Positions 4,601-33,374 of a stretch of 33,859 nt of DNA are shown here, one piece after another. The notes beneath the pieces are model-generated. The model did no database searches. It was not told the DNA's origin and saw only the letters and a program-made list of their open reading frames with translations. Within the stretch, counting starts at the first letter, position 1. Each line of letters starts with the position of its first letter. Position numbers and translations under genes: made by a program. The DNA is from an uncultured Coriobacteriaceae bacterium. GTDB taxonomy: Bacteria; Actinomycetota; Coriobacteriia; Coriobacteriales; Atopobiaceae. Location of the stretch: NCBI GenBank assembly GCA_902766445.1, contig CACXDP010000070.1, positions 1-33,859 of the forward strand. The letters run 5' to 3'.

Positions 4601-4874
4601 AGCGCTGGACATCCTCCATAGCCAAAAGGGCGATATTTCATTGGTCATTTTGGACCTGCATATGCCAAACATGACAGGCTGGGAGACGATGGCCCAGATG
4701 CAGGCCGACGAGGACCTGAAATCAGTTCCCATAATCGTATTGACAGTCGATCATGAGGCGGAGCTGGAATGCCTGAAGATGGGCGCGATGGATTTCATTC
4801 CCCAGCCGTTTCCGGATATAGAGATCGTCAGGGCCCGTATCGCCAAATGCATCGCACTTTCAGAGAGAAACTGA
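1608..4874 (+). CDS. EAL-domain c-di-GMP phosphodiesterase with PAS-like, degenerate GGDEF and C-terminal receiver domains
   Basis: This 1088-aa soluble protein starts with an EAL domain (about 15-260). All signature residues are present: EALAR (41-45), Asn100, Glu132, DDFG (162-165), Lys183, Glu217 and Gln237. Phosphodiesterase activity, hydrolysing c-di-GMP to pGpG, is therefore expected. The middle (about 280-680) reads as PAS-like sensor segments. A GGDEF fold follows (about 685-825), but its signature is AGRKF (762-766), so it cannot be a normal cyclase and may bind nucleotide only. Another PAS-like segment precedes a receiver domain (964-1085) with Asp971/Asp972 and phospho-acceptor Asp1016. 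The usual KPF lysine of receivers is Gln1066 (IPQPF). There are no membrane segments. The gene stands alone, with a TAAGG site upstream of the ATG. The C-terminal receiver position is uncommon; a partner kinase is not in the window. Confidence 0.93.
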   Translation: MGRNLDAFVMQNYKRAIDYREIRVFYQPVIRTSSRQLCSFEALARWIDPQMGTIYPNEFIPVLEREGLIHLLDAAILRQVCERIRSSIANGETPIPVSVNLSRLDFSLCDMFTVVDNIVSDYQIPHDFVYFEITESVMAEQKDLLRGIVDRFRSAGYQIWMDDFGSAYSSLNVLKDFTFDELKLDMSFLRPFNLRSRRIVTAIVKMAKVIDIHTLAEGVETEEQFAYMRDIGCEKVQGYYFGRPMPFDQAIDNLRDQGIQVELPQDRHYYDEIGKIDYLSAVPFMTRTERDDIASARELNSIPLALAEFSDSGFKVLFYNAAIQETARNAGMFTRVFTQEMLCQPQPYHMLTRNIINLMDSVKVNGDGKMFFTINEQYYEIRARRITETVGRYCVLISITNLTKDTQSEKTGYLDDSVRQIYALFERITLMNYREDSIKPLYTDTREDLLSNRRGIKQLVEEYAERFIYWEDQARFTRTFDPGLATRRLRESGSISFSEAFRTCVRHGRYAWKEYTLLKVDEENYFLLVRNVHDSVKDFLANNAVKLHEGGPYAPEQLWSNIVQSDLFRIFWKDYDRRFLGATRGFLDFYGFSSAEEIIGKNDEELGWHVHPDLFMNDEYKVIHEGVTLRNMPGNCISRGKNREILASKTPLYDVNGEITGLLGYFIDKGSMGVNDQRGEESSRRDLLTGLLNSRGISEEAESFLDEYHLRGRDFVRIHIGINDFDMINKQYGFDFGDKVLVAFGRALREGFGQRGVVGRYAGRKFTILQQVDSVEEAGRLRAKVRAVGDSVREIDGKPITLYLSVGYALYSECLDSDELTKNAEVCLLADYDQSISAESRIEHARELFSLFDDLPVLYAVFHVTYAEHSGRYDAVFFYVNHKYEEFARLPAKAMIGHTVRELFPFLGDDWYQDVKSAALDGKTVEGEFDSPLNGVHYRFTARQIIYPGYCAITCVEIPKVRERRRILIVDDIEMKREMLGDVLCDEYDISYACDGAEALDILHSQKGDISLVILDLHMPNMTGWETMAQMQADEDLKSVPIIVLTVDHEAELECLKMGAMDFIPQPFPDIEIVRARIAKCIALSERN

Positions 4875-18084: not shown

Positions 18085-18516
18085 ATGACCGAACTATTCA
18101 GGCAGCTGCTTACTCCCGAGATCACCATGGTACTCATCCTCATGGTGGTATGCGTCGTCTCCGTATATCTACTCTCCATCGTGTATGTCATACGTGACTC
18201 CGCGCGTCGAGGAGCAGAGCCTCGTGCCGTATGGGCCATCATTTCGGTTATCCCCATCGTTGGAATCTTGGCCTACGTGATACTGCGGCCCAGCTCGTAC
18301 CTCATCGACCGAGAGGAACAAGACCTCGACATCGCCCTGCGCGAGCATCAGCTCTCGCATTACGGCCTCTGCCCCAAATGCAGTGCTCCGATCGACCGTG
18401 ACTTCATCGTCTGCCCGATATGCAACACGCAGGTGCGCAACGTGTGTCCCACCTGCCATCGACCGCTCAATGCTGACTGGAAGGTCTGTCCTTATTGCCG
18501 CACTCACATCCAGTAG
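18085..18516 (+). CDS. Membrane protein with double zinc ribbon
   Basis: This 143-aa protein has two hydrophobic helices (about 13-35 and 48-67), resembling the short two-helix PLDc_N-type module. A charged linker follows and then two zinc ribbons: C96-x2-C99 with C110-x2-C113, and C121-x2-C124 with C135-x2-C138. The cysteine knuckles should bind two zinc ions on the cytoplasmic side. No catalytic residues are evident; such proteins are usually adaptors or scaffolds. It has its own TATAAT promoter and lies 127 nt before the membrane GGDEF gene on the same strand, so some read-through is possible. Confidence 0.82.
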   Translation: MTELFRQLLTPEITMVLILMVVCVVSVYLLSIVYVIRDSARRGAEPRAVWAIISVIPIVGILAYVILRPSSYLIDREEQDLDIALREHQLSHYGLCPKCSAPIDRDFIVCPICNTQVRNVCPTCHRPLNADWKVCPYCRTHIQ

Positions 18517-18605
18517 ACTGGTATCAAATTCAGGATTTTGCTGCTCGGTTCGTGGGCGGCTTATGGCTTTTGGTCCGTGGGAGCAAGAAACCTCAACACA
18601 ACGGG

Positions 18606-18611
18606 TATAAC
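18606..18611 (+). promoter_or_regulatory. Possible -10 element of the membrane GGDEF gene
   Basis: TATAAC lies 32 nt before the ATG at 18644. No convincing -35 hexamer is seen at the right spacing, so this is tentative. The gap 18517-18643 shows no c-di-GMP riboswitch motif. Confidence 0.28.
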
Positions 18612-18643
18612 TATCAATCCGACGCTCGAACTAGGTGGAGGAT

Positions 18644-19705
18644 ATGAGCCAGTTGCTGTCGACCCTCCGGTACGGAGGTCTGACCAAGGAACAATACACC
18701 TCGATTCGTGACCGCATCGACGAGGAGAACCGGCAGGTGCTGCTTTTGTACGCGCCTATCGGTTGTGTTGTCTTTTGCGTGCTGCTCTTGCTCTCCTATG
18801 TGACTCAGGGAGTGGCAAATGCGAACCAGATGGTCTACGCGAGCTCATGCGTAGCGATGGGAATCCTTACGGTAATCGCGCACGGATTCTCGAAGAATCA
18901 GCCCTTCGTGACACGATTGCTGGTCTGGGCGATCATGGTGGTGCTCTATGCGTTCTCGATAGCCGTGTCGGTGATTCATCCCGAGTATCCCTCGGTCTCG
19001 GCTATCGTGTTTCTGATGGTCGCGCCACTGCTCTTTGTCGAGTTACCGATGCGTGTCATGCTCGTCACGGTCTTGGCCGCAGCGGCGACTTGCGTTACCT
19101 CGATGGCAGTAAAGCCCATGGAGCTTGCAATCGACGACGTGTGGAACGCCGTGTCGTTCGGAATCGTTGCCATCGTAACCAACGTATTCCTCATGCGGAC
19201 AAAGCTGGTCTCGTTGTGGCGGGCACAGCAGATAGAGTATTACAGCAAGTTCGATCGGCTTACGGAGCTCCAAAACAGAAACAGCTACGAGGAGTCGCTA
19301 GAGGGCTATCCAACGAGCGGGGCCGAGGTGATCGTGTGCCTGTATGTGGATGCGAATGGCCTGCATGAGATCAACAACACCCAGGGGCATGATGCGGGAG
19401 ACAAGATGCTGCGAGCCGTGGCGAGTCAGCTTAGGAATCGTTTCGGTGAGGAGCACGTCTATCGCGTGGGCGGTGACGAGTTCGTCGGCTTCGTGCCGGA
19501 CGGTACGGTCGAGTGGACGCGAACCGAGCTCGAAGCCCTGCGCAAGCAACTCTCAGAAGATGGGTACTCGGTGTCGGTGGGCGTATTTGCAGTGACGGCA
19601 CAAGACGCCGACATGCACTCCCTCGTGCGTTCGGCCGAGCACGAGATGTACGACCAGAAGCGTAGTTTCTACACCTCGAGCGGCAAAGACCGCCGACGCA
19701 GGTAA
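18644..19705 (+). CDS. Membrane-bound diguanylate cyclase (GGDEF)
   Basis: The 353-aa protein has a short cytoplasmic start, five to six hydrophobic helices (about 33-185) and a C-terminal GGDEF domain (about 195-345). The domain carries FDRLTELQNRNSY (the DxLTxLxNR entry motif), metal-site Asp in LYVDANGLHEIN, GHDAGDKML and an intact signature GGDEF (276-280). Synthesis of c-di-GMP from two GTP is expected. The inhibitory RxxD site five residues before GGDEF is not preserved in register (RFGEEHVYRV), so product inhibition may be weak. ATG 18644 follows GGTGGAGG at very short spacing (2 nt); a GTG at 18635 in the same frame has no ribosome site. The gene ends 8 nt from the convergent jetD stop. 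Confidence 0.93.
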   Translation: MSQLLSTLRYGGLTKEQYTSIRDRIDEENRQVLLLYAPIGCVVFCVLLLLSYVTQGVANANQMVYASSCVAMGILTVIAHGFSKNQPFVTRLLVWAIMVVLYAFSIAVSVIHPEYPSVSAIVFLMVAPLLFVELPMRVMLVTVLAAAATCVTSMAVKPMELAIDDVWNAVSFGIVAIVTNVFLMRTKLVSLWRAQQIEYYSKFDRLTELQNRNSYEESLEGYPTSGAEVIVCLYVDANGLHEINNTQGHDAGDKMLRAVASQLRNRFGEEHVYRVGGDEFVGFVPDGTVEWTRTELEALRKQLSEDGYSVSVGVFAVTAQDADMHSLVRSAEHEMYDQKRSFYTSSGKDRRRR

Positions 19706-19713
19706 GGGGTCGG

Positions 19714-20886
19714 TCACGCACGCCCGAGAGCGCGCAAGGCCTCTGCGAGGGGTATCTTTTCCTGCTCGACTCGGCGGTGCCCATGCCAGTCTGGGTCGGT
19801 GAGCAGTTCGTAGGCGGCGCGTTCGTCGTTGGTGAGCAGGGGAAGGTCGCGACGCTCGCGCTCGATGCGGGAACGATGGTCCTTTTCGAAAGAGGTGCCG
19901 TAGCGCTCGTAGTGCTCGAGGGTGGACAGGTCCATGAGTATGCTCTCGCAGCGTATCCCACACTCTCGATAGGAATTCAGGATCTCGAATCCGTTTGCGT
20001 CAAGGTCGCCCCAGTACACGATGCGTCGTGCGACCCTCACGCCCTCGAAGTCAGCCACGAGAGATGGCCCTGCGTTGCCTGAGCCAAAGACGCACATGCC
20101 GTCCTCAAGCTCCGGACAAGCGAGGAACGTGTCCTTGTTTTCCACGATGAGGCACAGGTCCGGCTCGTATACAAGCTCACAGACGTCACCTGCCACCCAG
20201 CTGTCGAAGCGCCTGTGGCCCGAAGCGAGGTAGGAAGGACTCACGTAAGAGAAGTCGAGGCGTGCCGGACGCCCCTTGAGCCCAAGTTCTTCCCGTCCGG
20301 CGAGCAAGCACACGAGCTGGCGATGGCGCGCGAGATCGAGCCATTTCGCGTCGATTCCCGGCAGCGGCACCTGTCGTGGCGTGAGACCCGTGGCGTCGTG
20401 GGAGCGGAACCACGTCGCCGCAGAGAGAAGCAGTTCGAACTCTAGGTCGTCCCACGTATCCGCCTTGCGTAGCGCGAGGGCGCACTCGGTGGTGCTGACC
20501 TGGGGAAGCGCATCGCAGATCATATCGTGCCTCAGGCGTGTGCGTTTGAGGGCATGCGTCCATGGGCCGTCTGCACGTGGGGTCGCAAGCGTCGCGGCTG
20601 TCGTTGCGCTCGGTACGATAACGTGGGTGGGCACGCGCTTGGGGCCGCCCGCCTCACGCATCTCGTAGGCGATCTTTGTGTCGGTCTTTTGCTCCCAGGA
20701 ACGAAGTGCACGCGTCAGGTGGTCGAGCTCCTCGAGGCCGGTGAGCAAATCTCGCCTGCTCGGCCTGCCGACAGGCAGAGCCCATGGCCATGCGGCCTCC
20801 ACGCCACAGACGTCTTCGGCAAAGGTGCGGGAGAGTCGTCTGGAGAGGGCGTCCCGCAAAGAGCGCTCATCCTTTAGTCCTGCCAC
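19714..20886 (-). CDS. jetD: Wadjet system nuclease subunit JetD (DUF3322 + DUF2220)
   Basis: This 390-aa protein matches JetD, the Toprim-like nuclease of Wadjet anti-plasmid systems, which cleaves circular DNA after loop extrusion by JetABC. The N-terminal part (about 1-190) fits DUF3322 and the C-terminal part the DUF2220/Toprim fold. Catalytic acidic residues are visible: Glu249 in CLIVENKDTF, and Asp294-x-Asp296 in VYWGDLDANGFEIL. It starts at GTG 20886 inside the end of jetC (13-nt overlap, different frame), with GGAG 7 nt upstream, so it is translationally coupled. It is the last gene of the jet operon and ends 8 nt from the convergent GGDEF gene. I see no intrinsic terminator between them. 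Confidence 0.92.
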   Translation of the reverse strand: MAGLKDERSLRDALSRRLSRTFAEDVCGVEAAWPWALPVGRPSRRDLLTGLEELDHLTRALRSWEQKTDTKIAYEMREAGGPKRVPTHVIVPSATTAATLATPRADGPWTHALKRTRLRHDMICDALPQVSTTECALALRKADTWDDLEFELLLSAATWFRSHDATGLTPRQVPLPGIDAKWLDLARHRQLVCLLAGREELGLKGRPARLDFSYVSPSYLASGHRRFDSWVAGDVCELVYEPDLCLIVENKDTFLACPELEDGMCVFGSGNAGPSLVADFEGVRVARRIVYWGDLDANGFEILNSYRECGIRCESILMDLSTLEHYERYGTSFEKDHRSRIERERRDLPLLTNDERAAYELLTDPDWHGHRRVEQEKIPLAEALRALGRA

Positions 20887-23800
20887 TGCGGGTCTCCATC
20901 CTCGTTCGTGCCTGCACGCAGCAGAGAGCGTGTGCGAGTCGTCCCCGTTCGTTCGTCTTTCGTGAGACTTACGATTTGCGACGCGAGCGGTGCCACGGCC
21001 TCGACCTTGCCGTCGGGCACGGCGATGATCACCTGAAAGCCCAAGCCCGAGAGCGCACCGAGGGCACGGCGCGTGTGGTCGGAGTCTGCCTTGATGAACG
21101 CCTCATCGAGGAAGACCGGCGCGAATGAGGGAATGGTCGCAGAGTTGTATCCCAAGCAGTAAAGAAGCGCGGCACCGAGGATGAACGCGACGAGTTCCTG
21201 ATACTGCCCGCCGCTCTTTCCGTTGATGGAGTCGTACACCACGGCCTCTGCATCGGGGTCATCAGGTACGGTCTCACGAGCGGAGATGGTCACCATGTGG
21301 CGGGTGTCCAGGAAGTGGCGAGCGCTGCGTCCGGTAGTTGCGAGGTCGCGGCGTAGCAGGTCGCAGAAGCGTTCCACGTTTCGGTGCTCACGGATGACCT
21401 CCTCATCGCTCTCGAAGTCGTAGCGCGTTGCGAGTGAGCAGAGTTGGCGTAGGTCGCGGCGAAAGCGTCGCACATCCTGAAGGGTGCGTCGCTCAGCTAC
21501 CACGCCGAGGCGTCCTCGCCTCTCTCCAAAGGCGAACTGCCCGAGAATCTGGTTGATGGGTCGTAGGCGCTCGTCGAGTGCGCGCTCCTCTACGGTGAAG
21601 CCTTCCTGCAGGCGCGAAAGGTGGCGTGACACGTCACGCAGCATCTCGGTTCGCCATTCGGTCTCGGGGTCATCGAGGCGCTGCTCTATGAGCTGTGCGA
21701 GCACGTTGTGATAGTAGGGAAACTCGTCGATAGTCGTCCCGTGTTCGGTGTCGTCGGCCATGAAGTTGCTGTGAAACGTCGTGAACGAGGACTCGATGGC
21801 GCGGATGCACTGCGTCTCGCGTTCGCGCTTCGCTGCCAAGAGGTTCTCTACGTAACCACGTGCCTGTCGAGTGACGCGTTCGAAGCCACGCAGGATGCTC
21901 GAGCGATCGCCGAGCATGGCCTCAGCCTGTGCCACGGCTTCGGTACAAAGCGCCTCCTGTGGCTTCGTGACGATAACGCCCATGCCGACGAGGGCGTTGA
22001 CGAGCACGCGCGTCTGGTCTCGACTGTGCTCGAGACCCTGGATGAGTGCCTTGTGGGCATCGACCGTTCGCTTGAGATCATGGCAGGTTGTGGTGTCGGT
22101 GGCCACAAGCGCATCGGTCTGGCGAAGCATTTCGTTCAAGGCGCGCAGTTCGTCATCTTGCTCTAGTCGCTCGAGCTGCTCCTGTGTCTCGCGCATGCGT
22201 CGGTCGACGGAGTCGATGTCGAGCTCCTCCCAGGTGAGGGTCTCGACGCGTTGCGAGACGTTCATGCGGGCGGCGAGTACAGAGCGTTGGCGGTTGAGTG
22301 CGGCTCGCTCCTTGGCAAGCTCTGCATTGCGTTTCTTTGCGTCCTCAAGCTCGGCCTCGAGGTCCTCGATAAGCATCTCGTTGGAGAAGCCGATGATGAG
22401 CGTGGCACGGCTGTGTCCGATGGCTCCACGGTTGCCCACGCGCTCCTGACCGGAGGGTGTGATGCGTGCACCGCCGCCCGCCAGCTGTGGCACCGTGTCG
22501 ACGCAAAGGTGGTCGGTGGAGTCGCACACGGCATGCCGCACGTACGCGGCGAAGGGCGAGTCGTCGCGATAGACGACCTTCGACGAGACGTGTCCTGCTT
22601 TCGGAGTAGCGGGGTAGTCCTTGTCGAGGTCGACGAAGTCGTAGTGGTAGCGTCGACCCAATTGGTTTGCCAAGCCGTCGATGTCGCGACGAAAGTCCCT
22701 CTCCAGACGCTTGTCCACGAGGATACGGTCTGAGATGTGGGCGAGGGAGATGTTGATGGCGGTGCGCCAGAGAGACTGTTCGCGTGGCACGTCCATGAGC
22801 TCTGCCGCGAAGGGGATGTCGGAGGGATCGAGACCTGCCGCGCGTGCCATCAACTCGCGGGCGCGTGCCATCTGGGGCGTGATGTTGGTGCGGTGCCTGC
22901 GGTAGTAGTCGAGCTGCTTCTCGAGGTCATCGAGCTCGTGCTGCCCCATGCGAAGTCGTGCACCCAAGTCGTCTACCTGCTCCTGCAGCGCCTCGGCCTG
23001 TGCGGGGCCTGACGCGAGGACCTCATCACACCAGGTAGAGAGCTCGTGCCACTCGTCCTCGCTCGATGGCAGAGTCCGATCGCAGTCGTTCAGCGGCGTG
23101 GCGAGCGCCTCCCGATGGCGGCGTACCGATTCGCGACGAGCACGGTCGCTCTCAAGGCTCGCGCGCAGCCGTTCTAGGCTGGCTCCGCCACGCTCGTATA
23201 TGCTGGCACGTATTTGCTCGAGTTGCTCCTTGTGCTCAGCAAGGAGTGTCTTTGCGGACGTGAGGGAGCGCTCGTCCCGCTCGCACGCGCGAACGGTGCT
23301 GCCATGCTCCTTCTCCGTGAGGTCGAGCCGTCTGCGCTCGAGCCAGAGGCGCAGAGGACCTTGGTCGGAGTCGTAGGCGAGTGACTCGGCGAGACGTGCC
23401 TCCTCGCGGGCGTCGAGCATCTCCTGATGGTTCGCGTCGATGTCCTTGAGCATCTCACGCTTGCGACGGGCTTCTTCGATGCGGAGCCACACGCTCTGGT
23501 TATGGTCGAAGCAGTCAATCGTTTGCTGCGCGAGTTCGAAGGTGGAGGGCGGGTCGAGCACGAGCTCCTTAAAGAGATCGTCCACGTTGGTCATCGGGAT
23601 ACCTGACTGGATGCGATAGAGGAGCTTCATCGCGTTGGTGCCGTTACCCTGCGCGCCGATGCCCAGCGCGAGGTAGATGGCACGAAAGAAGCGACCGGAT
23701 CCGTCGTACACGGTGCAGCCAGGATAGGTGGCGCGCACGTCGCGCGAGCGCAGGTTGGTGGAGGCGAACGGGCGGAGTGCGCGTGGATCCAGGTCGCCTT

Positions 23801-24278
23801 CGACGGTAACGAATGTCTGGACCATGTCCGCGTCACCTCCGCCGGGCTTCAGCTGAAAGAATCTCGCGGCGCTGAACTTGGCTCCTGTCGTGTCCTGCCA
23901 AGTGTGGACGATGGCCGACCAGATGAGCTCCGTCTCGTCGCGCAAATACTTTCCCTTCGTGCGACCGCGCTCGTCGGCTACGGTGTCGACCATGCCACGC
24001 ACGTAGGTGCGTACCTCGCGGGGTGAACCTCCACGACCGAGGTTGGAGGCGGCGTTGAGGGTGCGTCCATAGGGCATCATCAGCACGGTCCCCGCGTCAA
24101 AGAGGGTTGACTTGCCGGTGCCTGACCGACCCGTGATGCACACGACCGAAGCAGCGCCTTCGTCGTCTGCGGGACGGATGGCGAGATCGTTGTAGCCATC
24201 GAAGGTGCCCCAGTTTATAAGCTGGATACGGCAGAGTCGCCACTGGGTACTGAGGAGGCTCATCGATGCGTCTGCCAT
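20874..24278 (-). CDS. jetC: Wadjet SMC-like ATPase JetC
   Basis: This 1134-aa SMC/MukB-like ATPase is the motor of the Wadjet complex. Walker A is GRSGTGKST (50-58), the ABC signature is KSGGQ (SGGQ 1022-1025) and Walker B is VFLDEAF (Asp1058-Glu1059). The head halves are joined by long charged coiled-coil segments (about 260-440 and 640-800) around a central hinge-like part. All ATPase residues are intact. The architecture matches type I JetC. ATG 24278 follows AAGGAG at 5-nt spacing and lies 21 nt after the jetB stop; the 3' end overlaps jetD. The family extrudes DNA loops and senses small closed circles. Confidence 0.95.
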   Translation of the reverse strand: MADASMSLLSTQWRLCRIQLINWGTFDGYNDLAIRPADDEGAASVVCITGRSGTGKSTLFDAGTVLMMPYGRTLNAASNLGRGGSPREVRTYVRGMVDTVADERGRTKGKYLRDETELIWSAIVHTWQDTTGAKFSAARFFQLKPGGGDADMVQTFVTVEGDLDPRALRPFASTNLRSRDVRATYPGCTVYDGSGRFFRAIYLALGIGAQGNGTNAMKLLYRIQSGIPMTNVDDLFKELVLDPPSTFELAQQTIDCFDHNQSVWLRIEEARRKREMLKDIDANHQEMLDAREEARLAESLAYDSDQGPLRLWLERRRLDLTEKEHGSTVRACERDERSLTSAKTLLAEHKEQLEQIRASIYERGGASLERLRASLESDRARRESVRRHREALATPLNDCDRTLPSSEDEWHELSTWCDEVLASGPAQAEALQEQVDDLGARLRMGQHELDDLEKQLDYYRRHRTNITPQMARARELMARAAGLDPSDIPFAAELMDVPREQSLWRTAINISLAHISDRILVDKRLERDFRRDIDGLANQLGRRYHYDFVDLDKDYPATPKAGHVSSKVVYRDDSPFAAYVRHAVCDSTDHLCVDTVPQLAGGGARITPSGQERVGNRGAIGHSRATLIIGFSNEMLIEDLEAELEDAKKRNAELAKERAALNRQRSVLAARMNVSQRVETLTWEELDIDSVDRRMRETQEQLERLEQDDELRALNEMLRQTDALVATDTTTCHDLKRTVDAHKALIQGLEHSRDQTRVLVNALVGMGVIVTKPQEALCTEAVAQAEAMLGDRSSILRGFERVTRQARGYVENLLAAKRERETQCIRAIESSFTTFHSNFMADDTEHGTTIDEFPYYHNVLAQLIEQRLDDPETEWRTEMLRDVSRHLSRLQEGFTVEERALDERLRPINQILGQFAFGERRGRLGVVAERRTLQDVRRFRRDLRQLCSLATRYDFESDEEVIREHRNVERFCDLLRRDLATTGRSARHFLDTRHMVTISARETVPDDPDAEAVVYDSINGKSGGQYQELVAFILGAALLYCLGYNSATIPSFAPVFLDEAFIKADSDHTRRALGALSGLGFQVIIAVPDGKVEAVAPLASQIVSLTKDERTGTTRTRSLLRAGTNEDGDPQWQD

Positions 24279-24299
24279 GAATGCTCCTTGTTCGTGGGC

Positions 24300-24950
24300 T
24301 TACAGTCGTTCCTTGAGCTGTGCGATGAGCTCTTGGGCGCGCTCGAGGGTCATGATGCACGGCACTATCGGAAGGATGCGGAATCTGTTGTCGGCGGTTT
24401 TGGCCTGCTCCATGTAGCCGAGGGTCATGGCCTCGCTGACGGCCGCATCGATGCGCTTGCGCACGAGGTTCGCGTCACCTTCGTCAGCGTAGGGGGAGAC
24501 GGTGATGAACGCGTCATCGATTTCGGAGCGATCGATGTACCAATGCTCGCGTCCGTCGAGCTCGGCGTTTTGCGCGGCGATGCGCAGCGTGACGAGGAGG
24601 ATCGTGACGTCACGCTTCTGTACCAAACCGCGCTTGAGTACGACGCCAGGCATCTCTCCGTCAAAAGGTGCCGTTGCCGCCCAAGCAACCCTATACTTCT
24701 CATTGAGGTTGAGTGTTAGGCAGAGGTTGTTGAGCGTCCTTGTCACATCCTCGCGGTGCTGGAGGATGAGGGAGTAGGTGGAAGTGCGATACTTGCCGGG
24801 ATCCTCATCAGAGACATAGCGGTCTCGCAGAAGCCTCGTGGTGGCGTAGCGAGCTTCTGGTGGGATGTCGCCGATATCGCCCTCAAAGAGGCCCTCGCGG
24901 TCGGGTTCGTCGTAGATGTCGTATCCGAGCTCTGCGCTCTCTTCGTCCAT
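24300..24950 (-). CDS. jetB: Wadjet MukE-like subunit JetB (DUF4194)
   Basis: The 216-aa protein fits JetB/DUF4194, the MukE-like winged-helix (kite) subunit that binds JetA and the JetC heads. Recognition rests on length, position between jetA and jetC, and sequence character: TYSLILQHREDVTRTLNN, and a wHTH-like C-terminal half with VRKRIDAAVSEAMTLGYM. Catalytic motifs are neither expected nor seen. TAGGAG lies 4 nt before ATG 24950. The spacing to jetA is 15 nt and to jetC 21 nt, so one transcript is expected. Confidence 0.9.
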   Translation of the reverse strand: MDEESAELGYDIYDEPDREGLFEGDIGDIPPEARYATTRLLRDRYVSDEDPGKYRTSTYSLILQHREDVTRTLNNLCLTLNLNEKYRVAWAATAPFDGEMPGVVLKRGLVQKRDVTILLVTLRIAAQNAELDGREHWYIDRSEIDDAFITVSPYADEGDANLVRKRIDAAVSEAMTLGYMEQAKTADNRFRILPIVPCIMTLERAQELIAQLKERL

Positions 24951-24965
24951 GTGTCTCCTATCCTG

Positions 24966-26468
24966 TTATGTATCGCCATCGCAAAGCTGGGCGAGTTGCT
25001 CGTCGCTCAGTGTGAGGTTCGATCCCAACCAGACGAGTTCGTTGCCGTCTGTGTCCACGCATCGCCAGTAGGTGGGGCTTGACGTGGGCATGTCGTCGAG
25101 GCGCTGTAGCAGGCCTACGACCTCCGAGGAGCGGCGCATGCGCTCGGGCAGGGCGTTGAAGGACGCCGCGACGTCCACGCGATTGTGCTCGTTGCGGACG
25201 GGGGCCTTCGCCACGAGCGAGAGGACGCGCCGTGTCTGCGGGCCGCCTTCGCGTACGAGGCGCTCTAGGTCAACATCGAGGCCGTCGTCACGGTGTTCGG
25301 ATAGTGGCGGTATAGGTCGCGGTGGCGTGAGGTTGGCCTCGCGGGTCAGGAGCGGGCTGATGAGCGTGTCGTTCACGATGCCGTTGGCGGGCAAGGTCTC
25401 GTTATGGGAGACGTGCGACGCCCAGAGGTGGACGAGGTTGTCCAGCTCCTTGAGTGCCTTGGTGAGGGCGCGTTGGTCGGTGTTGTCAAACTGCGAGACG
25501 GCGCGGCCTATGACGTTGGTCGCGCGATTCTTTGCCTCGAGGACGCGATCGATGCCTTGGCTTACCTGGCTCCAGGCGTCGCCGAGCCTGCGACGCTGCT
25601 CCCATTCCATGCCTTCGAATGCCGGTGCATTGGCAATGGCGTCGAGCAGGTCTCCGATTTCGTTGGACTGGCTGGGGTCGGCGATGACGGAAACCGCGTC
25701 GAGGAAGGAGCGTCCCTCTTCGGTGCCCGTGAACATCTCACGGGAGCGCTGCAGGTACGTGCCCATGATTTCGCCGAGAGGCCGCTCGTCGCTCATGAAT
25801 TCGGCGGTGGTGCGACGTGTTTCGTCTCGAATGCCCTGCGCAGTCTTTGCGAGGTCGGCCGGTATGTCGTGCATGAGGTTGACGAGAGTGCGTACCTCCG
25901 CCTGAGCCTGCTCGCGGGTAAGGGTATAGCGTCCCCCTGAGGCATCGAAGGCCTTGAGCTCCTGCTGGGCCCGCTTCACGCGCTCGACGAGCAGCTGTCG
26001 GCGTTGCCTCTTGTCGCCTGAGAGCTCGGCGGCAGTACGGGTGAGCGCCTCACGCAACACGCGCATGAGCGATCCGCTAAAGATGGCGTCGGTTCGCGAT
26101 AGGCTGTCGATGGCATCCATGGCGCGCATGGCCTCGGTCGTGAGCCGATAGCTCGTGCGTCCGTCTTCCTCGATGGCGCTCTCCAGCCAACCGAACTGAT
26201 CGGTGAGCAGTCGGCATAGCTCGCGTGCCGTGATTGTGCGTCCGTCAACGATGGGTAGCGTGCCCTCCATCTGTGCTGCGGCAAGGTCGTCCGCCATGTC
26301 GTCGATGATGGCGAGCAGGTCGTCCTCGTAGCGGCTGTCGGTCTTGTCGGGGAAGGACGAGCGGAAGAGCGCTATGTAGGTCTGCGAATAGGGACTCTTT
26401 AGCAGGTTGAGCGCTCCGCTATCGTAGGCCGTCTGAATCTGTCGGTACTCCTCAAAGAAGCTTGCCAT
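24966..26468 (-). CDS. jetA: Wadjet kleisin-like subunit JetA (DUF3375)
   Basis: The 500-aa protein matches the DUF3375 family, the MukF/kleisin-like subunit of type I Wadjet. It begins MASFFEEYRQIQTAYDSGAL, with an N-terminal helical/winged-helix region, long helices in the middle (about 150-350) and a variable end. It bridges JetC heads with JetB in the family model. ATG 26468 has only a weak ribosome site (GGCAGA), and the stop codon of the upstream GGDEF-EAL gene lies just 25 nt before it, so coupling or re-initiation from that gene is plausible. Confidence 0.92.
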   Translation of the reverse strand: MASFFEEYRQIQTAYDSGALNLLKSPYSQTYIALFRSSFPDKTDSRYEDDLLAIIDDMADDLAAAQMEGTLPIVDGRTITARELCRLLTDQFGWLESAIEEDGRTSYRLTTEAMRAMDAIDSLSRTDAIFSGSLMRVLREALTRTAAELSGDKRQRRQLLVERVKRAQQELKAFDASGGRYTLTREQAQAEVRTLVNLMHDIPADLAKTAQGIRDETRRTTAEFMSDERPLGEIMGTYLQRSREMFTGTEEGRSFLDAVSVIADPSQSNEIGDLLDAIANAPAFEGMEWEQRRRLGDAWSQVSQGIDRVLEAKNRATNVIGRAVSQFDNTDQRALTKALKELDNLVHLWASHVSHNETLPANGIVNDTLISPLLTREANLTPPRPIPPLSEHRDDGLDVDLERLVREGGPQTRRVLSLVAKAPVRNEHNRVDVAASFNALPERMRRSSEVVGLLQRLDDMPTSSPTYWRCVDTDGNELVWLGSNLTLSDEQLAQLCDGDT

Positions 26469-26493
26469 GACGTTGTCTGCCTGCAGCGCTAGG

Positions 26494-29400
26494 CTATGCG
26501 TTCGTGTCGTTGCGCAGTAGTGCGTCTGTGCTCACTATGTACGCGTAGGCGATGTCGCCCTTTCCCTTGGAGTTGACGACGCGTGCGCGGTAGACGACGC
26601 GTTTCACCTCGTCTCCCTTCGCCAGTACGCGAAATGCGATTTCTAGCGCATTGCTTGCGGTCAGGCGCTCGACCTCCATCAACTGCTGACTGACGCGCGG
26701 CCAGTCTTCGGGATGTACCATTCCCTGCATGTGGCTGGCGATGTGCAGGAGCGCGTCCGAGAGCTCCTCATAGCCGAGCAGATGGGCAAGACCGTCGTTT
26801 GCAAACAAGATCTTGCCGCTTGGGCGATGTGCGAGCATGGCGAGCGGCATGCCCTCGGCCAGCTCGCGCGAGGTGAAGCCGAGCAACGACCTTAGCGGGG
26901 AATCTGCGAGCTCGGGGGTCCATGCCCTAAAGCCACTCTTGCCCTCGAGCTTCACGGCATAGAGCGCCTCGTCCGCTCTGGTATAGACGGTCTGGAGGTC
27001 GAGGTTTGGCTTGTACCAGGCGTAGCCGGCAGAGAGGGGCAGCAGATAGCGCTGGTCGTGAAGCTCGAACGTGAGGCTTCTGCTTGTGAGGTACTTCAGC
27101 ATCTCTTCGAGGTTGTCGACATCCTTTCCAAAGAGCGCCACGAGCACCTCGTCGCCGCCGTTGCGCCCGATGATGGCCGTGGGTGGGAACGTGGCTACAA
27201 GCTCGTGCGCCAAGGTGCGCAGGGCCTCATCACCTACGTCATGGCCATAGAGGTCATTGACGGTCTTGAAGTCGTCCACGTCCATGAGGATGAGTACGAA
27301 CGGCTTGTCAGGGACCCCTTTCATGTTCTCTGCGATAGCCTCATCGATGCCACGGCGGTTGAGCAGGTTCGTGAGGGGGTCGTGCGTGCCCGCGAGGATG
27401 AGCTGTTCACGCTCGCTTTGCTCGGCGTCAGCGAGGGAGAAGGCAAAGATGCAGCATCCCTCGGTGCGCGAGGGCGTAAAGTTATAGCTTATCCAGTGGC
27501 CGGCGTGGGAGCTGTACGTCACGTCATGCAGGCTCTCGCCCTCGATGGCAGATCGGTAGCAGAGTGACAGCCACGGCAGTCCCGCGAAGCCTGCGACCTC
27601 AAGCAGGGTCTTGCCGGTGAAATCAGCGGGTCCGAGCCTGCCCCACTCGCGGTAGAGGTCGTTGGCGTACACGTACTCGACGTCCTGTGGACCGTCCCCC
27701 GCTTCGTTCAGGATGACCCGCAGTACTGCATAGGCTACCGGCACATCGCCGTACGTTCCCAGGCCTGCGCCCAAGAGGGTGGGCATGCTCATGATTAGGA
27801 ATGCCTCTGCCGTCTCGCACGAGACGAGCGGCATCGCGTAGAACTGGTAACCAGATCCGGTGTCGACCGGTCCGGAGATGCGCTCCCACGATCCGGAGGT
27901 GCGGCAACGCACGATGGCAGAGTGGAGTGCCTCGTCGAATCGTACCGCGAAGCGTGCCGTCTGTGTCGTAGGGATGCTCGTCGAGAGGACATCCCCTCGA
28001 TCGAGGAAATCGCGTAGCGCTTCGTTGGCACGCGGTACATACCACGAGTCGTCCCTCAGTTCGATGATCCCCGCGGGGAGCTCCGATACGGGAGACTCGC
28101 TCACGCCTTGGCCGTTGTTGTTTGATGCGAGGTCGCACAAGCTTACCGAAGCGACGGCATCCCAATACGGCTCCTCCTCCTGCGGTTCGAGAGGAAGGTG
28201 AGTGCCTGCCCGCAGCGTCGAGATGATCTCCTTGAGGGGAGTCGGCCTGAAATAGTGGTAGCCTTGCAGCATGTCACATCCCATGGACGCGAGTCGCTCG
28301 GCCTGTTCAGCTGTCTCGATGCCCTCGGCGAGCGTCTTTGTGCCGAGTCGCTTGGCCGCACGGATGATCGAGTCTACGATGATGTCGCACTTCTCGTCGT
28401 TCTTCTTTTTGAAGAATGCCATGTCAAGCTTGATGAGGTCGAAGTCAAACTCCTTGATGGCAGCGAGAGAGGAGAAGCCGCTACCGAAGTCGTCCATCCA
28501 GACTTCGAAGCCTTCCTTGTGCAGGGCGTCGATTTGCCCATGGAGGAGCTGTGGGTTGCTCGAGGCGACAGACTCGGTGAACTCGATGCGCAGCAGCTTG
28601 TGCTCGATGCCGCGGGCGTCAGCCATGCGAGCGATCACGTTCGCGATGTCCATCTCGTCGAGATCGCGTAGCGAGAGGTTCACCGAGATGGGAACCACGC
28701 CGACTCCCCGCTGTCGCCTGTCCGCCATGTCGGCAAGTGCGTGGTCGACGATACGCAGGTCGAGCTTACTCAGGAGTCCTGCTTCTTCGAGCACAGGTAT
28801 GAAACTCGCGGGGGAGAGGGGGCCGTACTCGGGATCGATCCAACGTGCAAGGGCCTCCTCGTGGCATACCCTGCCCGTGGCGGAACGAACTATGCCCTGA
28901 TAATAAGGTCTGACCCATCCTTCGGCGAGGGCACGATCAAGATTGTCGAGGATGTGTATGCGCAGCGCTGCCTCGCGGCGCATCTCGTCGGTGTACCACA
29001 TGTAATGCGACTCCCACGTCGCACTATTGGACTCGCATGCAAGCTGTGCGCGGTCGACTGCATGCGCGATGTCGTCATCCTTCTCGATGGAGTAAATGCC
29101 CGCCTTGATGGGTGGGGCGCCTTCGATGCCACAGGAGAGGAAGTCGGCAAAGGCTGACTTGACGCGATCCTCTACGACATCTGCCGCCGTGATCGTGCAG
29201 AAGCTGTCGCCACCGAAGCGGCTGCAGACGTTGGAGGGGAAGTGCTTACGGAGGATGTCGGCAAAGGTGCGCAGCATCTGGTCGCCGGCCTTGCGTCCGT
29301 AACGGGCGTTGTAGTGCTTGGTGCCCATGATGTCGAAGTCCACGAGAGCGAGGTTCGTTCCTCGCGCAATTGATTCTCTTGCAGCGAGTTCGGCCACGTG

Positions 29401-29814
29401 ATGAAAGCGGTCCATGCTGGAGAGTCCAGTGAGCCAGTCGATGACATCGCCACGATTCATCTTGACCAAAAACACATAGAAGACGGGCCGCTCGCCCTCA
29501 CGTCTCACGAGCTTGCCATAACCGTCCACGCCCACCGCTGTGCCGCTCTTTGTACACACCTGATAGAAGATGTGGGTGTGTCCGTCGTCCTCTTTCACTT
29601 GGCCCCAAATGCTGTCAGTGATGGCCTCGAGTTCATGGGCATAGACAAACCCGTTGAAAGAACCGCCCGTGAGCTGCATGAACTCTTCCATGGTGTCGCA
29701 CTCAAAGAGGTCGAGCACGTATTGGTTGACATGCAGAATCTCCCTGTCGCCATCGGCATAGTAGATGAGGATGCCGCCGGGGATCTGGTTGCTCTCGAGG
29801 AGCCACTGTTCCAT
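26494..29814 (-). CDS. PAS-GGDEF-EAL-PAS-GGDEF-PAS c-di-GMP signalling protein
   Basis: This 1106-aa soluble protein contains an N-terminal PAS-like domain (about 1-120); a first GGDEF (about 125-275) with signature GGDSF (201-205), where Ser replaces the catalytic Glu; and an EAL domain (about 290-535). The EAL domain has EALAR (320-324), Asn379, Glu411, DDFG (441-444), Lys462, Glu497 and Gln517 all intact. A PAS-like stretch (about 575-795) is followed by a second GGDEF (about 810-960) with MDVDDFKTVND and GGDEV (886-890), and a last PAS (about 985-1095). A working phosphodiesterase is expected, with possible cyclase activity from the second GGDEF because the first four signature residues are intact. 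It lies 64 nt after the DUF2804 gene and 25 nt before jetA, so it is probably co-transcribed with Wadjet. It is paralogous in build to the protein at 1608-4874. Confidence 0.93.
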   Translation of the reverse strand: MEQWLLESNQIPGGILIYYADGDREILHVNQYVLDLFECDTMEEFMQLTGGSFNGFVYAHELEAITDSIWGQVKEDDGHTHIFYQVCTKSGTAVGVDGYGKLVRREGERPVFYVFLVKMNRGDVIDWLTGLSSMDRFHHVAELAARESIARGTNLALVDFDIMGTKHYNARYGRKAGDQMLRTFADILRKHFPSNVCSRFGGDSFCTITAADVVEDRVKSAFADFLSCGIEGAPPIKAGIYSIEKDDDIAHAVDRAQLACESNSATWESHYMWYTDEMRREAALRIHILDNLDRALAEGWVRPYYQGIVRSATGRVCHEEALARWIDPEYGPLSPASFIPVLEEAGLLSKLDLRIVDHALADMADRRQRGVGVVPISVNLSLRDLDEMDIANVIARMADARGIEHKLLRIEFTESVASSNPQLLHGQIDALHKEGFEVWMDDFGSGFSSLAAIKEFDFDLIKLDMAFFKKKNDEKCDIIVDSIIRAAKRLGTKTLAEGIETAEQAERLASMGCDMLQGYHYFRPTPLKEIISTLRAGTHLPLEPQEEEPYWDAVASVSLCDLASNNNGQGVSESPVSELPAGIIELRDDSWYVPRANEALRDFLDRGDVLSTSIPTTQTARFAVRFDEALHSAIVRCRTSGSWERISGPVDTGSGYQFYAMPLVSCETAEAFLIMSMPTLLGAGLGTYGDVPVAYAVLRVILNEAGDGPQDVEYVYANDLYREWGRLGPADFTGKTLLEVAGFAGLPWLSLCYRSAIEGESLHDVTYSSHAGHWISYNFTPSRTEGCCIFAFSLADAEQSEREQLILAGTHDPLTNLLNRRGIDEAIAENMKGVPDKPFVLILMDVDDFKTVNDLYGHDVGDEALRTLAHELVATFPPTAIIGRNGGDEVLVALFGKDVDNLEEMLKYLTSRSLTFELHDQRYLLPLSAGYAWYKPNLDLQTVYTRADEALYAVKLEGKSGFRAWTPELADSPLRSLLGFTSRELAEGMPLAMLAHRPSGKILFANDGLAHLLGYEELSDALLHIASHMQGMVHPEDWPRVSQQLMEVERLTASNALEIAFRVLAKGDEVKRVVYRARVVNSKGKGDIAYAYIVSTDALLRNDTNA

Positions 29815-29834
29815 TGTGCGCCTTTCTTCCGACG

Positions 29835-29850
29835 TGGCGTCAAAACGCCA
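29835..29850. other. Small hairpin in the DUF2804/GGDEF-EAL gap
   Basis: TGGCGT and ACGCCA form a perfect 6-bp stem with a 4-nt loop. There is no T-run on the minus strand, so a true terminator is unlikely; it may be an RNA processing or stability element. Confidence 0.35.
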
Positions 29851-29878
29851 TTCTAGCAGCTCGGGCTAAGCGTTCGCC

Positions 29879-30922
29879 TTAATACCTGTTGTGGATGTGC
29901 TCGGCGCTAGCACGCAGGCCACGAATGGCGAGTGGCGTACCGTCATCGAGTGCGACCGTGCCGTCGAGCACGCCAAAGACCTGATGCTGCTCGGACTTGA
30001 TGAGGCCTCCCACGTCGATGTCGTCGATGCGGTCAATCGAAGGCGAGAACGCGAGGTCGAGCCTGCCCTCGTCATCGGTCATGTGCCACGGTGCGAGGTA
30101 GTCGTAGCCGCCGTCCTCCTTGGTGGGGATGCCGAAGTCAACACGTCCAAGCTTGTGAGCGACGCCGTCCACAAAGAGCATGTTTTCGCTGGCAGCGGTC
30201 GTGTTGCCGAAGCCGTAGCCGAGGTTCAGGCCAATGACATGACCATCAAGCTTGCCTTGTGCCGCAGCCCAATACCATACGTTGTCGTAGGTCCAGACGC
30301 CACGCCCCCAGTCGAGGAGGCCGAGCGAATCGCTCGCGTCGAACTCGTGGACCATCGCACCGCGTCGGAAGCCGCCGCGTGCTCGCATGCCGATGATTTT
30401 GCGGTTGTAATAGAAGGCCTTCTCGTCCTCATCCCAGGGGGTGCAGATCACCATCGAGTCGCGTGGCTCTTGGTCTAGGAGAAGCTCGACCTCGAGCTCG
30501 TCGTTGCCGTCGAACGATGCCATGTAGAACGAGAGGCGCCGCGCCGTCCCTTCGTGGGCGAAGCGCACGCGACAGCGCTTGTTTTTCCAGACGATGTCAC
30601 CCGTTTCCGAGCTGAGGGGCAGCTCCATGCGTCCGAGGGGCATCACGAGCATCTCGCTGGTGGTCTTGTAGGTACAGGTCTCGAAGTCGATGACGCTAGC
30701 CGAGACGAGGCCGATGTATCCTAGGTCCGAGAACGTGAGCGCCACGGCAAAGCGGTCATCGTTTATGAGGTAGTAGTCCCAGTCCTTGATGCGCAACGGA
30801 GACGCGGCGATGCGTTCGTGGTCATAGTCAAAGGGCGGCCTGAAGGCGTACCCTGGCTCGCGCAGCCGCCCGCGCTCGTCCAGCAGTGGTCCTGAACCCG
30901 TGATGAGGTGGTCTTGTGCCAT
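29879..30922 (-). CDS. DUF2804 family protein
   Basis: The 347-aa protein matches DUF2804, a beta-rich family related to CrtC/AttH lipocalin-like folds, whose biochemical role is not established. It reads GPLLDERGRLREPGYAFRPP at the start and has conserved-looking aromatic patches (DWGRGVWTYDNVWYWAAAQG, and LNLGYGFGNTTAASENMLFV). There is no signal peptide or membrane helix, so a cytoplasmic location is likely. ATG 30922 has AAGGGAG 7 nt upstream; an upstream in-frame extension would cross the promoter-like TATACT and is rejected. It is divergent from thrS and may be the first gene of a unit running through jetD. Confidence 0.88.
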   Translation of the reverse strand: MAQDHLITGSGPLLDERGRLREPGYAFRPPFDYDHERIAASPLRIKDWDYYLINDDRFAVALTFSDLGYIGLVSASVIDFETCTYKTTSEMLVMPLGRMELPLSSETGDIVWKNKRCRVRFAHEGTARRLSFYMASFDGNDELEVELLLDQEPRDSMVICTPWDEDEKAFYYNRKIIGMRARGGFRRGAMVHEFDASDSLGLLDWGRGVWTYDNVWYWAAAQGKLDGHVIGLNLGYGFGNTTAASENMLFVDGVAHKLGRVDFGIPTKEDGGYDYLAPWHMTDDEGRLDLAFSPSIDRIDDIDVGGLIKSEQHQVFGVLDGTVALDDGTPLAIRGLRASAEHIHNRY

Positions 30923-30973
30923 GATTGCGCTCCCTTCCGCGGGAAAGCTTCCGCAAGAATCAGTTGTAGGCAT

Positions 30974-30979
30974 AGTATA
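30974..30979 (-). promoter_or_regulatory. Possible -10 element for the DUF2804/GGDEF-EAL/jet unit
   Basis: TATACT on the minus strand lies about 52 nt before the ATG at 30922. The -35 region is weak. This is the best promoter-like element found upstream of the proposed long operon. Confidence 0.35.
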
Positions 30980-31009
30980 CGCGTAAAGAAGCACGAGTGA
31001 GGACCCACC

Positions 31010-31040
31010 AAAACTCGCACGGAGTCGCAAAAACTCGCAC
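31010..31040 (+). repeat. Direct repeat pair upstream of thrS
   Basis: AAAACTCGCAC occurs at 31010-31020 and 31030-31040, exactly 20 bp apart (two helical turns), in the divergent region of thrS and the DUF2804 gene. Such phasing suits a dimeric DNA-binding protein, but none can be named. No T-box leader motif is present. Confidence 0.6.
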
Positions 31041-31111
31041 ACATCTTCACGCCTCATCTCACGCCGTTGGTGTAAGCTGTACAAGTTTCTGCGATTTCGA
31101 GGAGAGTTGCC

Positions 31112-32878
31112 ATGAAGGTACTTTACAACGACGGCCATGTGGCCGAGGTCGCTCCCGAAGAGGAGCTACACGTCATCCGTCACAGCGCCGCCCACATCCT
31201 GGCCCAGGCCATCAAGCGCCTGTATCCCGAGGCGGACTTCGCCTATGGCCCAGCCACCGACAATGGTTTCTATTATGACGTCGACCTGCCTGAGGGCGTG
31301 AAGGTGAGCGAGGACGACTTCCCTGCCATCGAGGCGGAGATGCGAAAGATTTGCAAGGAGAACCTCAAGTTCCAGACCTATGAGCTTCCGCGCGAGGAGG
31401 CCATCACGCACATGCAGGAGCGTGGCGAGAAGTACAAGGTCGAGCACATCGGCGACCTGCCCGAAGATGCCCGTATCACCTTCTACAAGCAGGGTGAGTA
31501 CGTGGACATGTGCGTGGGACCGCACCTCATGTATACCAAGGCGCTCAAGGCCTTCAAGCTCACCGGCGTCTCCGGCGCCTACTGGAAGAACGACGCTCAC
31601 AACAAGATGCTGACGCGTATCAACGGCATCGCCTTTGCCACCAAAGCCGAGCTCGATGCCCACCTCCAGATGATCGAGGAGGCAAAGAAGCGCGACCACC
31701 GGCGCATCGGCCAGGAGATGGAACTCTTTATGTTTGCCGACGAGGGCCCGGGCTTCCCCTTCTGGCTGCCGAACGGCACCAAGCTCAAGAACGCCCTCAT
31801 CGACTACTGGCATGAGATGATGGCCAAGTACGACTACGATGAGGTGGAGACCCCGCAGATCCTCAGCCGCAAGCTCTGGGAGACCTCCGGACACTGGGAC
31901 CACTACAAGGCAAACATGTACACCACCGTCATCGACGAGGAAGACTATGCCGTCAAGCCGATGAATTGCCCCGGTGCCTGCCTCATCTACAAGAGCCGCC
32001 CGCGCTCCTATCGAGACCTGCCGCTTAAGCTTGCCGAGGCTGGACTCGACCATCGCCACGAGCTGAGGGGCGCCCTGCACGGGCTCTTCCGCGTGCGCGC
32101 GTTCACCCAGGATGACGGCCACATCTATGTGACGCCCGAGCAGATATCGGACATCGTGCTCGAGACGGCGCGCCTCTTCGACGAGTACTACCAGCAGTTC
32201 GGCTTCGAGTACACGGTCGAGCTCTCCACCCGTCCCGAGGACTCCATGGGTTCCGACGAGGATTGGGCTGCAGCTGAGGATGGCCTGCGCCTGGCGCTGG
32301 AGAAGATGGGCACCGAATACATCCTCAACGAGGGTGACGGCGCCTTCTACGGGCCAAAGATCGACTTCCATCTCAAGGACTGCCTGGGGCGTACCTGGCA
32401 GTGCGGTACCATCCAGCTCGACTTCCAGCTCCCGCAGAACTTCCAACTCGAGTACACCGCCTCTGACGGCTCCAAGCAGCGCCCGATCATGATTCACCGT
32501 GCGGGCTTCGGTTCCTTCGAGCGCTTCATCGGCATGCTCACCGAGCAGTATGCCGGTAAGTTCCCCACCTGGCTTGCTCCCTGCCAGGTCAAGGTCCTGC
32601 CCGTCTCCGAGAAGACCCGCGACTATGCCATCGAGGTCGGCAATGCCCTCAAGGAGGCCGGCATCCGCGTCAAGGTGGACGAGCGTGACGAGAAGATCGG
32701 CTACAAGATCCGTGAGGCCCGCGCAACCGACCGTGTGCCCTACATGCTGATCTTGGGCGAGAAGGAGAAGGCCGCCGGTAACATCTCCGTGCGTGACCGC
32801 TCCAACGAGACCCATCCGGCAGAGCTTGCCGACTTCATCGCCGAGATCACCAAAGAGATCGTCGAGCGTCGTGGGTAG
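31112..32878 (+). CDS. thrS: Threonyl-tRNA synthetase lacking the TGS domain
   Basis: This 588-aa class II synthetase is about 55 residues shorter than E. coli ThrRS (642 aa). The shortfall is at the N-terminus, where only about 20 residues precede the editing domain, so the TGS domain is absent. The editing site is intact: H24-x3-H28 (HSAAH), and C134-x3-H138 (CVGPH). Catalytic zinc ligands are Cys286, His337 and His462. Motif 2 is present as HRHELRGALHG, and motif 3 as AGFGSFERFIGML. In the usual MNCPGH segment the final His is Ala289 (MNCPGA). The start at ATG 31112 has GGAG upstream; there is no in-frame upstream room for a TGS domain because the non-coding divergent region intervenes. 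Strong codon bias fits high expression. Confidence 0.96.
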   Translation: MKVLYNDGHVAEVAPEEELHVIRHSAAHILAQAIKRLYPEADFAYGPATDNGFYYDVDLPEGVKVSEDDFPAIEAEMRKICKENLKFQTYELPREEAITHMQERGEKYKVEHIGDLPEDARITFYKQGEYVDMCVGPHLMYTKALKAFKLTGVSGAYWKNDAHNKMLTRINGIAFATKAELDAHLQMIEEAKKRDHRRIGQEMELFMFADEGPGFPFWLPNGTKLKNALIDYWHEMMAKYDYDEVETPQILSRKLWETSGHWDHYKANMYTTVIDEEDYAVKPMNCPGACLIYKSRPRSYRDLPLKLAEAGLDHRHELRGALHGLFRVRAFTQDDGHIYVTPEQISDIVLETARLFDEYYQQFGFEYTVELSTRPEDSMGSDEDWAAAEDGLRLALEKMGTEYILNEGDGAFYGPKIDFHLKDCLGRTWQCGTIQLDFQLPQNFQLEYTASDGSKQRPIMIHRAGFGSFERFIGMLTEQYAGKFPTWLAPCQVKVLPVSEKTRDYAIEVGNALKEAGIRVKVDERDEKIGYKIREARATDRVPYMLILGEKEKAAGNISVRDRSNETHPAELADFIAEITKEIVERRG

Positions 32879-32900
32879 AAACCGACATCGTGAGACGTCC

Positions 32901-32945
32901 GGCATCCCCCGTGACCAGGAGACTGGTTGCGGGGGTGCCCCGTTT
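32901..32945 (+). terminator. Terminator-like hairpin after thrS
   Basis: GGCATCCCCCG pairs with CGGGGGTGCC (one bulged T) and continues inward through ACCAG/CTGGT around a GAGA loop. The tail has only three Ts (CCCGTTT), so termination may be partial. The next reading frame runs through it. Confidence 0.7.
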
Positions 32946-32963
32946 GAGTGCAAAGATCTGCCC

Positions 32964-33374
32964 GTGGTGGAGGTTCTTAGTGGCAACCCCATCGAGTGTA
33001 TTGATGTGAAGGGCAAGCGCATCGATGTTACCCTCATGACCAAGTTGGGGGTCAATGCCAAGGGGGCTTTGGAGGTCATAGACAACGGAGACGAAGAAGA
33101 TGCTGAGGGGCGCTATCGCCACTATCGCCTCACGTCCGATGCCGCCCAAGTCATCGCCTCCTATCTCGTCTGCCATCCACGGGTGCTTGAGGTCCGCTAT
33201 CCTGGTCTCAAGTCTGACCCGTCGTTCAACGTCGCTGCCCGTACGCTCCAAGGTGGCTTTGGTCCCATCGTCGACTATCGTATGGATGACGGGTGGCATC
33301 GCCTGGTGGCAACAGAGGTGGGCGTGCTTGATCAGGTCATGGATCTCGAGCGGAAATTAGGGGTTCGATCATGA
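32964..33374 (+). CDS. Small protein resembling the C-terminal part of Cys/Met-metabolism PLP enzymes
   Basis: The reading frame is open through this region; the end at 33374 is clear but the start is not (GTG 32964 taken; GTG 32967, GTG 33006 and ATG 33036 are alternatives, none with a convincing ribosome site in place). Residues from SDAAQVIASYLVCHPRVLEV through RYPGLKSDPSFNVAART to LQGGFGPIVDY resemble the C-terminal domain of cystathionine gamma-synthase/lyase-type enzymes (NA..VA.FL..HP.V..V.YPGL.S.P). The PLP-lysine and cofactor-binding domain are missing, so it cannot be a working enzyme alone. The stop overlaps the ATG of the next gene (ATGA), which supports genuine translation. It could be a decayed gene fragment or a reused domain. 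Confidence 0.6.
   Translation: MVEVLSGNPIECIDVKGKRIDVTLMTKLGVNAKGALEVIDNGDEEDAEGRYRHYRLTSDAAQVIASYLVCHPRVLEVRYPGLKSDPSFNVAARTLQGGFGPIVDYRMDDGWHRLVATEVGVLDQVMDLERKLGVRS

What the first reader, a model, noticed from the sequence alone, without database searches (positions are those of the whole stretch)
19714..29814. Wadjet anti-plasmid operon directly behind a c-di-GMP enzyme
jetA-jetB-jetC-jetD are complete, with intact ATPase and nuclease motifs. The stop of a PAS-GGDEF-EAL-PAS-GGDEF-PAS gene lies 25 nt before jetA, whose own ribosome site is weak, and no terminator is visible between them. This suggests one transcript and possibly coupled translation. A second-messenger enzyme linked to plasmid defence would be unusual: either c-di-GMP status tunes Wadjet, or Wadjet inserted behind this gene. 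Gene identities rest on the known Wadjet type I families; the link is inferred.
Basis: partly seen in the sequence, partly recalled or inferred. Interest (0 to 1): 0.75.

Follow-up and report, generated by a model that had tools for sequence, protein, structure and literature searches.

The report
Ordinary Wadjet operon behind c-di-GMP gene
This is an intact but ordinary bacterial anti-plasmid system (Wadjet) in a gut bacterium; it lies right behind a signalling-enzyme gene in this one lineage only, so the pairing looks like an accident of gene order and not a control circuit.

Summary
A complete type I Wadjet operon, jetA-jetB-jetC-jetD (26468-19714, minus strand), has intact ATPase and nuclease motifs. 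The stop of a GGDEF-EAL-GGDEF-PAS gene (29814-26494) lies 25 nt before jetA, whose ribosome site is weak, with no promoter or terminator seen between. One transcript is likely. The suggested functional link is not supported. GGDEF-EAL/jetA adjacency occurs only in the window genome and one near-identical relative (RUG440; 96.9% DNA identity over the block and its flanks). It is absent at the other 29 Wadjet loci of the order with upstream sequence, and at 67 of 68 wider GTDB loci. The closest other jetABCD (JetC 77% identical) lies elsewhere with its own promoter-like element and strong ribosome site. Full-length relatives of the GGDEF-EAL protein (51-54%) occur in same-genus genomes away from Wadjet. 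Four same-genus genomes have an HD-domain gene where the window has GGDEF-EAL + jetABCD + GGDEF. With roughly 36 c-di-GMP genes per genome, one such neighbour upstream of one Wadjet locus in the genus is expected 12-20% of the time. Verdict: ordinary Wadjet, lineage-specific neighbourhood, probably shared transcript, no evidence of c-di-GMP control.

The parts
24966..26468 (-). jetA (DUF3375, kleisin-like)
   Evidence: PF11855 E=2e-61; PADLOC JetA1 E=2.5e-76
24300..24950 (-). jetB (DUF4194, MukE/KITE-like)
   Evidence: PF13835 E=8.9e-22; PADLOC JetB1
20874..24278 (-). jetC (SMC ATPase); Walker A G50-T58, signature S1022-G1024, Walker B D1058-E1059
   Evidence: PADLOC JetC1 E=4e-242; relatives in PDB 8dk2 and 8as8; motif residues invariant over 15 sequences
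19714..20886 (-). jetD (Toprim nuclease); E249, D294 and D296 present
   Evidence: PF09983 E=1e-36; E249 aligns with the residue mutated in PDB 8q72 JetD(E248A)
26494..29814 (-). GGDEF-EAL-PAS-GGDEF-PAS protein: EAL motifs intact, first GGDEF degenerate (GGDSF), second GGDEV
   Evidence: Pfam and PDB alignment
26469..26493 (-). 25-nt junction, weak ribosome site, no terminator or promoter-like element
29850..29858 (-). Extended -10-like element TGCTAGAAT, candidate promoter of GGDEF-EAL and possibly of the jet genes
   Evidence: consensus match only, kept in G009
18635..19705 (+). Convergent GGDEF gene, stop 8 nt from the jetD stop
   Evidence: PF00990 E=1.1e-18
29879..30938 (-). DUF2804 gene, conserved upstream flank of the block; the listed ORF start at 31138 is too long, since most homologues begin near residue 67-73, so the start given here is an estimate
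   Evidence: PF10974 E=4.5e-123; start estimated from homologues
18085..18516 (+). Double zinc-ribbon gene, conserved far flank of the block
   Evidence: flank of DUF2804-HD in four genus relatives

Best explanation
An ordinary, intact type I Wadjet system. By homology, JetABC is an SMC motor that extrudes DNA loops and JetD cuts small circular DNA such as plasmids (inferred, not assayed here). In this gut (rumen-type) Atopobiaceae lineage the four genes lie behind an unrelated c-di-GMP enzyme gene, between DUF2804 and a zinc-ribbon gene, where several relatives carry an HD-domain gene. The jet genes seem to have no promoter of their own here and are probably read through from a promoter in front of GGDEF-EAL (inferred). 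No c-di-GMP control of Wadjet is needed or indicated.
For: Complete type I gene set with intact motifs. GGDEF/EAL upstream of jetA only in G000 and G009, absent at 29 other order loci with upstream sequence and in 67 of 68 GTDB loci. Upstream neighbours elsewhere in the genus are a histidine kinase, DUF188, aldo-keto reductase, metallo-beta-lactamase and others. G011 jetABCD, the closest other system, is elsewhere with its own TGCTATACT and strong ribosome site. Relatives of the GGDEF-EAL protein in G012, G007, G001 and G005 are not next to jet genes. Block and flanks diverge equally between G000 and G009. All genes are under purifying selection, dN/dS 0.02-0.15. Same site without the block in G006, G013, G015 and G004.
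Against: A second GGDEF gene abuts jetD, and G001 also has a GGDEF gene downstream of jetD; counting lineages, two c-di-GMP neighbours among about 26 sides has a chance probability of 0.03-0.07, post hoc; counting all three sides it is 0.002-0.01. The HD gene is present elsewhere in G000, so the site change was not a simple clean insertion. No expression data.
Confidence: 0.85

Rival explanations
1. c-di-GMP status tunes Wadjet: the GGDEF-EAL enzyme and jetABCD form one functional module.
For: 25-nt gap, no promoter at jetA, weak jetA ribosome site; GGDEF genes on both sides; arrangement kept in two closely related genomes with both parts under purifying selection.
Against: Adjacency not conserved in any other lineage. 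GGDEF-EAL relatives exist away from Wadjet. No paper was found that links Wadjet with c-di-GMP.
Confidence: 0.05
2. GGDEF-EAL, jetABCD and the convergent GGDEF moved in together as cargo of one island or mobile element.
For: The three units together occupy the DUF2804/zinc-ribbon interval that holds only an HD gene in four relatives. Diguanylate cyclases occur on mobile genetic elements and genomic islands (PMC10672970, abstract).
Against: No integrase, transposase or boundary repeats found; equal divergence of block and flanks shows no recent transfer between G000 and G009; no intermediate or donor genome found.
Confidence: 0.35
3. jetA has its own promoter inside the 3' end of GGDEF-EAL, so the two are transcribed separately.
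For: The closest other system (G011) has its own promoter-like element directly before jetA.
Against: No sigma-70-like or extended -10 match on the minus strand near 26468-26800. Consensus scans miss many promoters.
Confidence: 0.25

Closest known systems
Wadjet type I (JetABCD; MksBEFG in Corynebacterium glutamicum)
   Same: Four genes, order A-B-C-D, domains, ATPase and nuclease residues, PADLOC type I best hits.
   Different: Nothing in the system itself; only its neighbour differs.
GGDEF-EAL bifunctional c-di-GMP enzymes
   Same: EAL catalytic residues and a GGDEF domain align with solved enzymes.
   Different: A degenerate first GGDEF before the EAL, and a second GGDEF behind it flanked by PAS domains; the same full-length layout recurs in genus relatives away from Wadjet.

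Membership tests
Wadjet type I | jetA-jetB-jetC-jetD, DUF3375, DUF4194, SMC ATPase and DUF3322/JetD_C in one gene cluster | tested here: met
Wadjet type I | JetC Walker A, signature and Walker B intact | tested here: met
   invariant in 15 sequences
Wadjet type I | JetD catalytic acidic residues | tested here: met
   E249, D294, D296
Wadjet type I | Restriction of small circular plasmids | not testable with these tools
   needs a transformation or conjugation assay
c-di-GMP phosphodiesterase (EAL) | EAL catalytic residues | tested here: met
   alignment with 5m3c; activity not tested
Diguanylate cyclase (GGDEF) | GGDEF/GGEEF signature | tested here: inconclusive
   first domain GGDSF (lacks the Glu), second GGDEV
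Wadjet accessory gene (GGDEF-EAL as part of the system) | Conserved association with jetABCD across lineages | tested here: not met

The most novel reading that the evidence does not exclude
In this single lineage the c-di-GMP enzyme and Wadjet were recently wired into one transcript, so that signals acting at the GGDEF-EAL promoter, or c-di-GMP itself, set the level of plasmid defence.
Probability: 0.06. Interest if true: 0.7.

Novelty: new member of a known kind. Interest (0 to 1): 0.15.

Why it matters
If c-di-GMP controlled Wadjet, biofilm state could govern plasmid uptake. The comparison made here says the pairing is most likely a local accident of gene order. What stays useful is modest: native Wadjet regulation is hardly studied, and here the operon seems to depend on a promoter in front of another gene, while its closest relative has a promoter-like element of its own.

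Tried and rejected
Rfam and tRNA scans of the window found nothing. Boundary repeats at the block ends: only one chance-like inverted pair at each end and no direct repeats; each end was scanned on its own, so a repeat shared between the two ends was not tested. The hairpin GGCGTTTTGACGCC between DUF2804 and GGDEF-EAL is not kept in G009. The minus-strand ORF 31166-33085 was rejected as a gene: the plus strand there encodes a class II tRNA synthetase of the ThrS type. Literature searches for Wadjet with c-di-GMP gave only incidental co-mentions. Structure prediction was not run, because homology was already clear.

Full report
Observation. The window holds, on the minus strand, DUF2804 (ORF end 29879), a GGDEF-EAL gene (29814-26494), jetA (26468-24966), jetB (24950-24300), jetC (24278-20874) and jetD (20886-19714). 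Pfam and PADLOC name all four Jet proteins, best as type I. JetC carries Walker A (G50-T58), the SGG signature (1022-1024) and Walker B (D1058, E1059), invariant over 15 relatives. JetD carries E249, which aligns with the residue mutated in PDB 8q72 JetD(E248A), and D294/D296. The junction is 25 nt, has no terminator-like site, and jetA's ribosome site is weak (-3.6 kcal/mol against -7.3 to -7.9 for jetB, jetC and jetD).

The enzyme. The EAL domain aligns over its whole length with solved phosphodiesterases, and the catalytic residues are there. The second GGDEF reads GGDEV. The protein may be bifunctional; activity was not tested. The genome has about 36 ORFs with GGDEF or EAL domains (my count of the hits) in 4.07 Mb, close to 1% of genes (gene number estimated).

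Organism. The window's genome is an unnamed assembly of 484 contigs, 89% complete. Its closest relatives with the system are public MAGs labelled Atopobiaceae, Coriobacteriaceae or actinobacterium, from sheep gut and the RUG series; that the RUG series is from rumen is my own knowledge. Atopobiaceae belong to the Coriobacteriales.

Is the pairing conserved? A search with JetC in 100 relatives and with the JetA family in 397 genomes of the order found 33 genomes with a JetA match, 32 of them over the family's cut-off. Of 31 loci with at least about 1.3 kb upstream of jetA, only the window and G009 have a GGDEF/EAL gene there (my count). In a wider set of 80 GTDB loci, 68 of them with more than 2.5 kb upstream, again only RUG440 has it. 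Elsewhere in the genus the gene upstream of jetA is a hybrid histidine kinase (G014, G010, with a 55-aa ORF between), DUF188 (G001), aldo-keto reductase (G007), metallo-beta-lactamase (G015) and others.

Converse test. Relatives of the GGDEF-EAL protein with the full architecture (51-54% identical) occur in G012, G007, G001 and G005, not next to their Wadjet genes; in the fragmented assemblies G005 and G016 the genes lie on short contigs, so distance cannot be measured there. The convergent GGDEF also has relatives away from Wadjet. So neither partner needs the other.

Site. In G006, G013, G015 and G004 DUF2804 is followed by an HD-domain gene (Pfam HD) and the convergent zinc-ribbon gene. In the window the same two flanks enclose GGDEF-EAL, jetABCD and GGDEF instead. 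The HD gene is found on another contig of G000, so the region was rearranged, not just cut open once. No integrase or transposase was found among the window proteins scanned, and no repeats at either end.

How it is probably expressed. The only extended -10-like match (TGNTANNNT) on the minus strand between 19714 and 30938 is TGCTAGAAT at 29858-29850, 35 nt before GGDEF-EAL, and it is unchanged in G009 although nearby bases differ. Such matches are no more frequent in the window than in shuffled sequence, so this is a suggestion only. In G011 the jetA gene has a similar element (TGCTATACT) and a strong ribosome site directly in front. I infer that in the window lineage jetABCD is read through from the GGDEF-EAL promoter. 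That alone does not make c-di-GMP a regulator of Wadjet.

Chance. Two lineages with such a neighbour on either side (window, G001) give 0.03-0.07, and all three sides counted apart 0.002-0.01, post hoc. The G001 GGDEF is only 30% identical to the window's, and c-di-GMP genes may cluster, so I read this as a weak hint at most.

Selection. Between G000 and G009 all jet genes and both GGDEF genes show dN/dS of 0.02-0.14, so both parts are functional genes; this does not say that they act together.

Literature. No paper in the searched library links Wadjet to c-di-GMP. A review notes that plasmid restriction by Wadjet probably involves further layers of regulation in vivo (PMC10586767), so control of Wadjet is an open question in general.

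Verdict. Ordinary type I Wadjet, real adjacency, probable shared transcript, no support for a functional c-di-GMP link.

Noticed in passing
L042:4870-5037 and L044:4419-4586: In G014 and G010 a 55-aa acidic ORF (MRIIAKQPSVED...), nearly identical in both, ends a few nt before the TTG start of jetA; no Pfam match.
   Followed up: partly
L126-L165 (Curtobacterium, Isoptericola and other actinobacteria): About 40 JetABC loci have no JetD detectable by the session's JetD profile in the fetched flanks, even at a loose threshold in the 18 rechecked: either a diverged or distant nuclease, or nuclease-free MksBEF-like systems. A few of these loci are cut short by the contig end.
   Followed up: partly
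window 18085-31138 compared with L091, L092, L093, L095 and L041: The interval between DUF2804 and the zinc-ribbon gene holds an HD-domain gene in four relatives and the Wadjet block here; in G011 jetABCD lies on the other side of DUF2804. Possibly a recurrent exchange site.
   Followed up: partly
window 1608-4874: A further EAL-PAS-GGDEF protein with a C-terminal receiver domain, making three c-di-GMP genes in this 34-kb window.
   Followed up: no
L058:3145-6710: jetC of G008 appears split into two ORFs, possibly a frameshift or assembly error.
   Followed up: no
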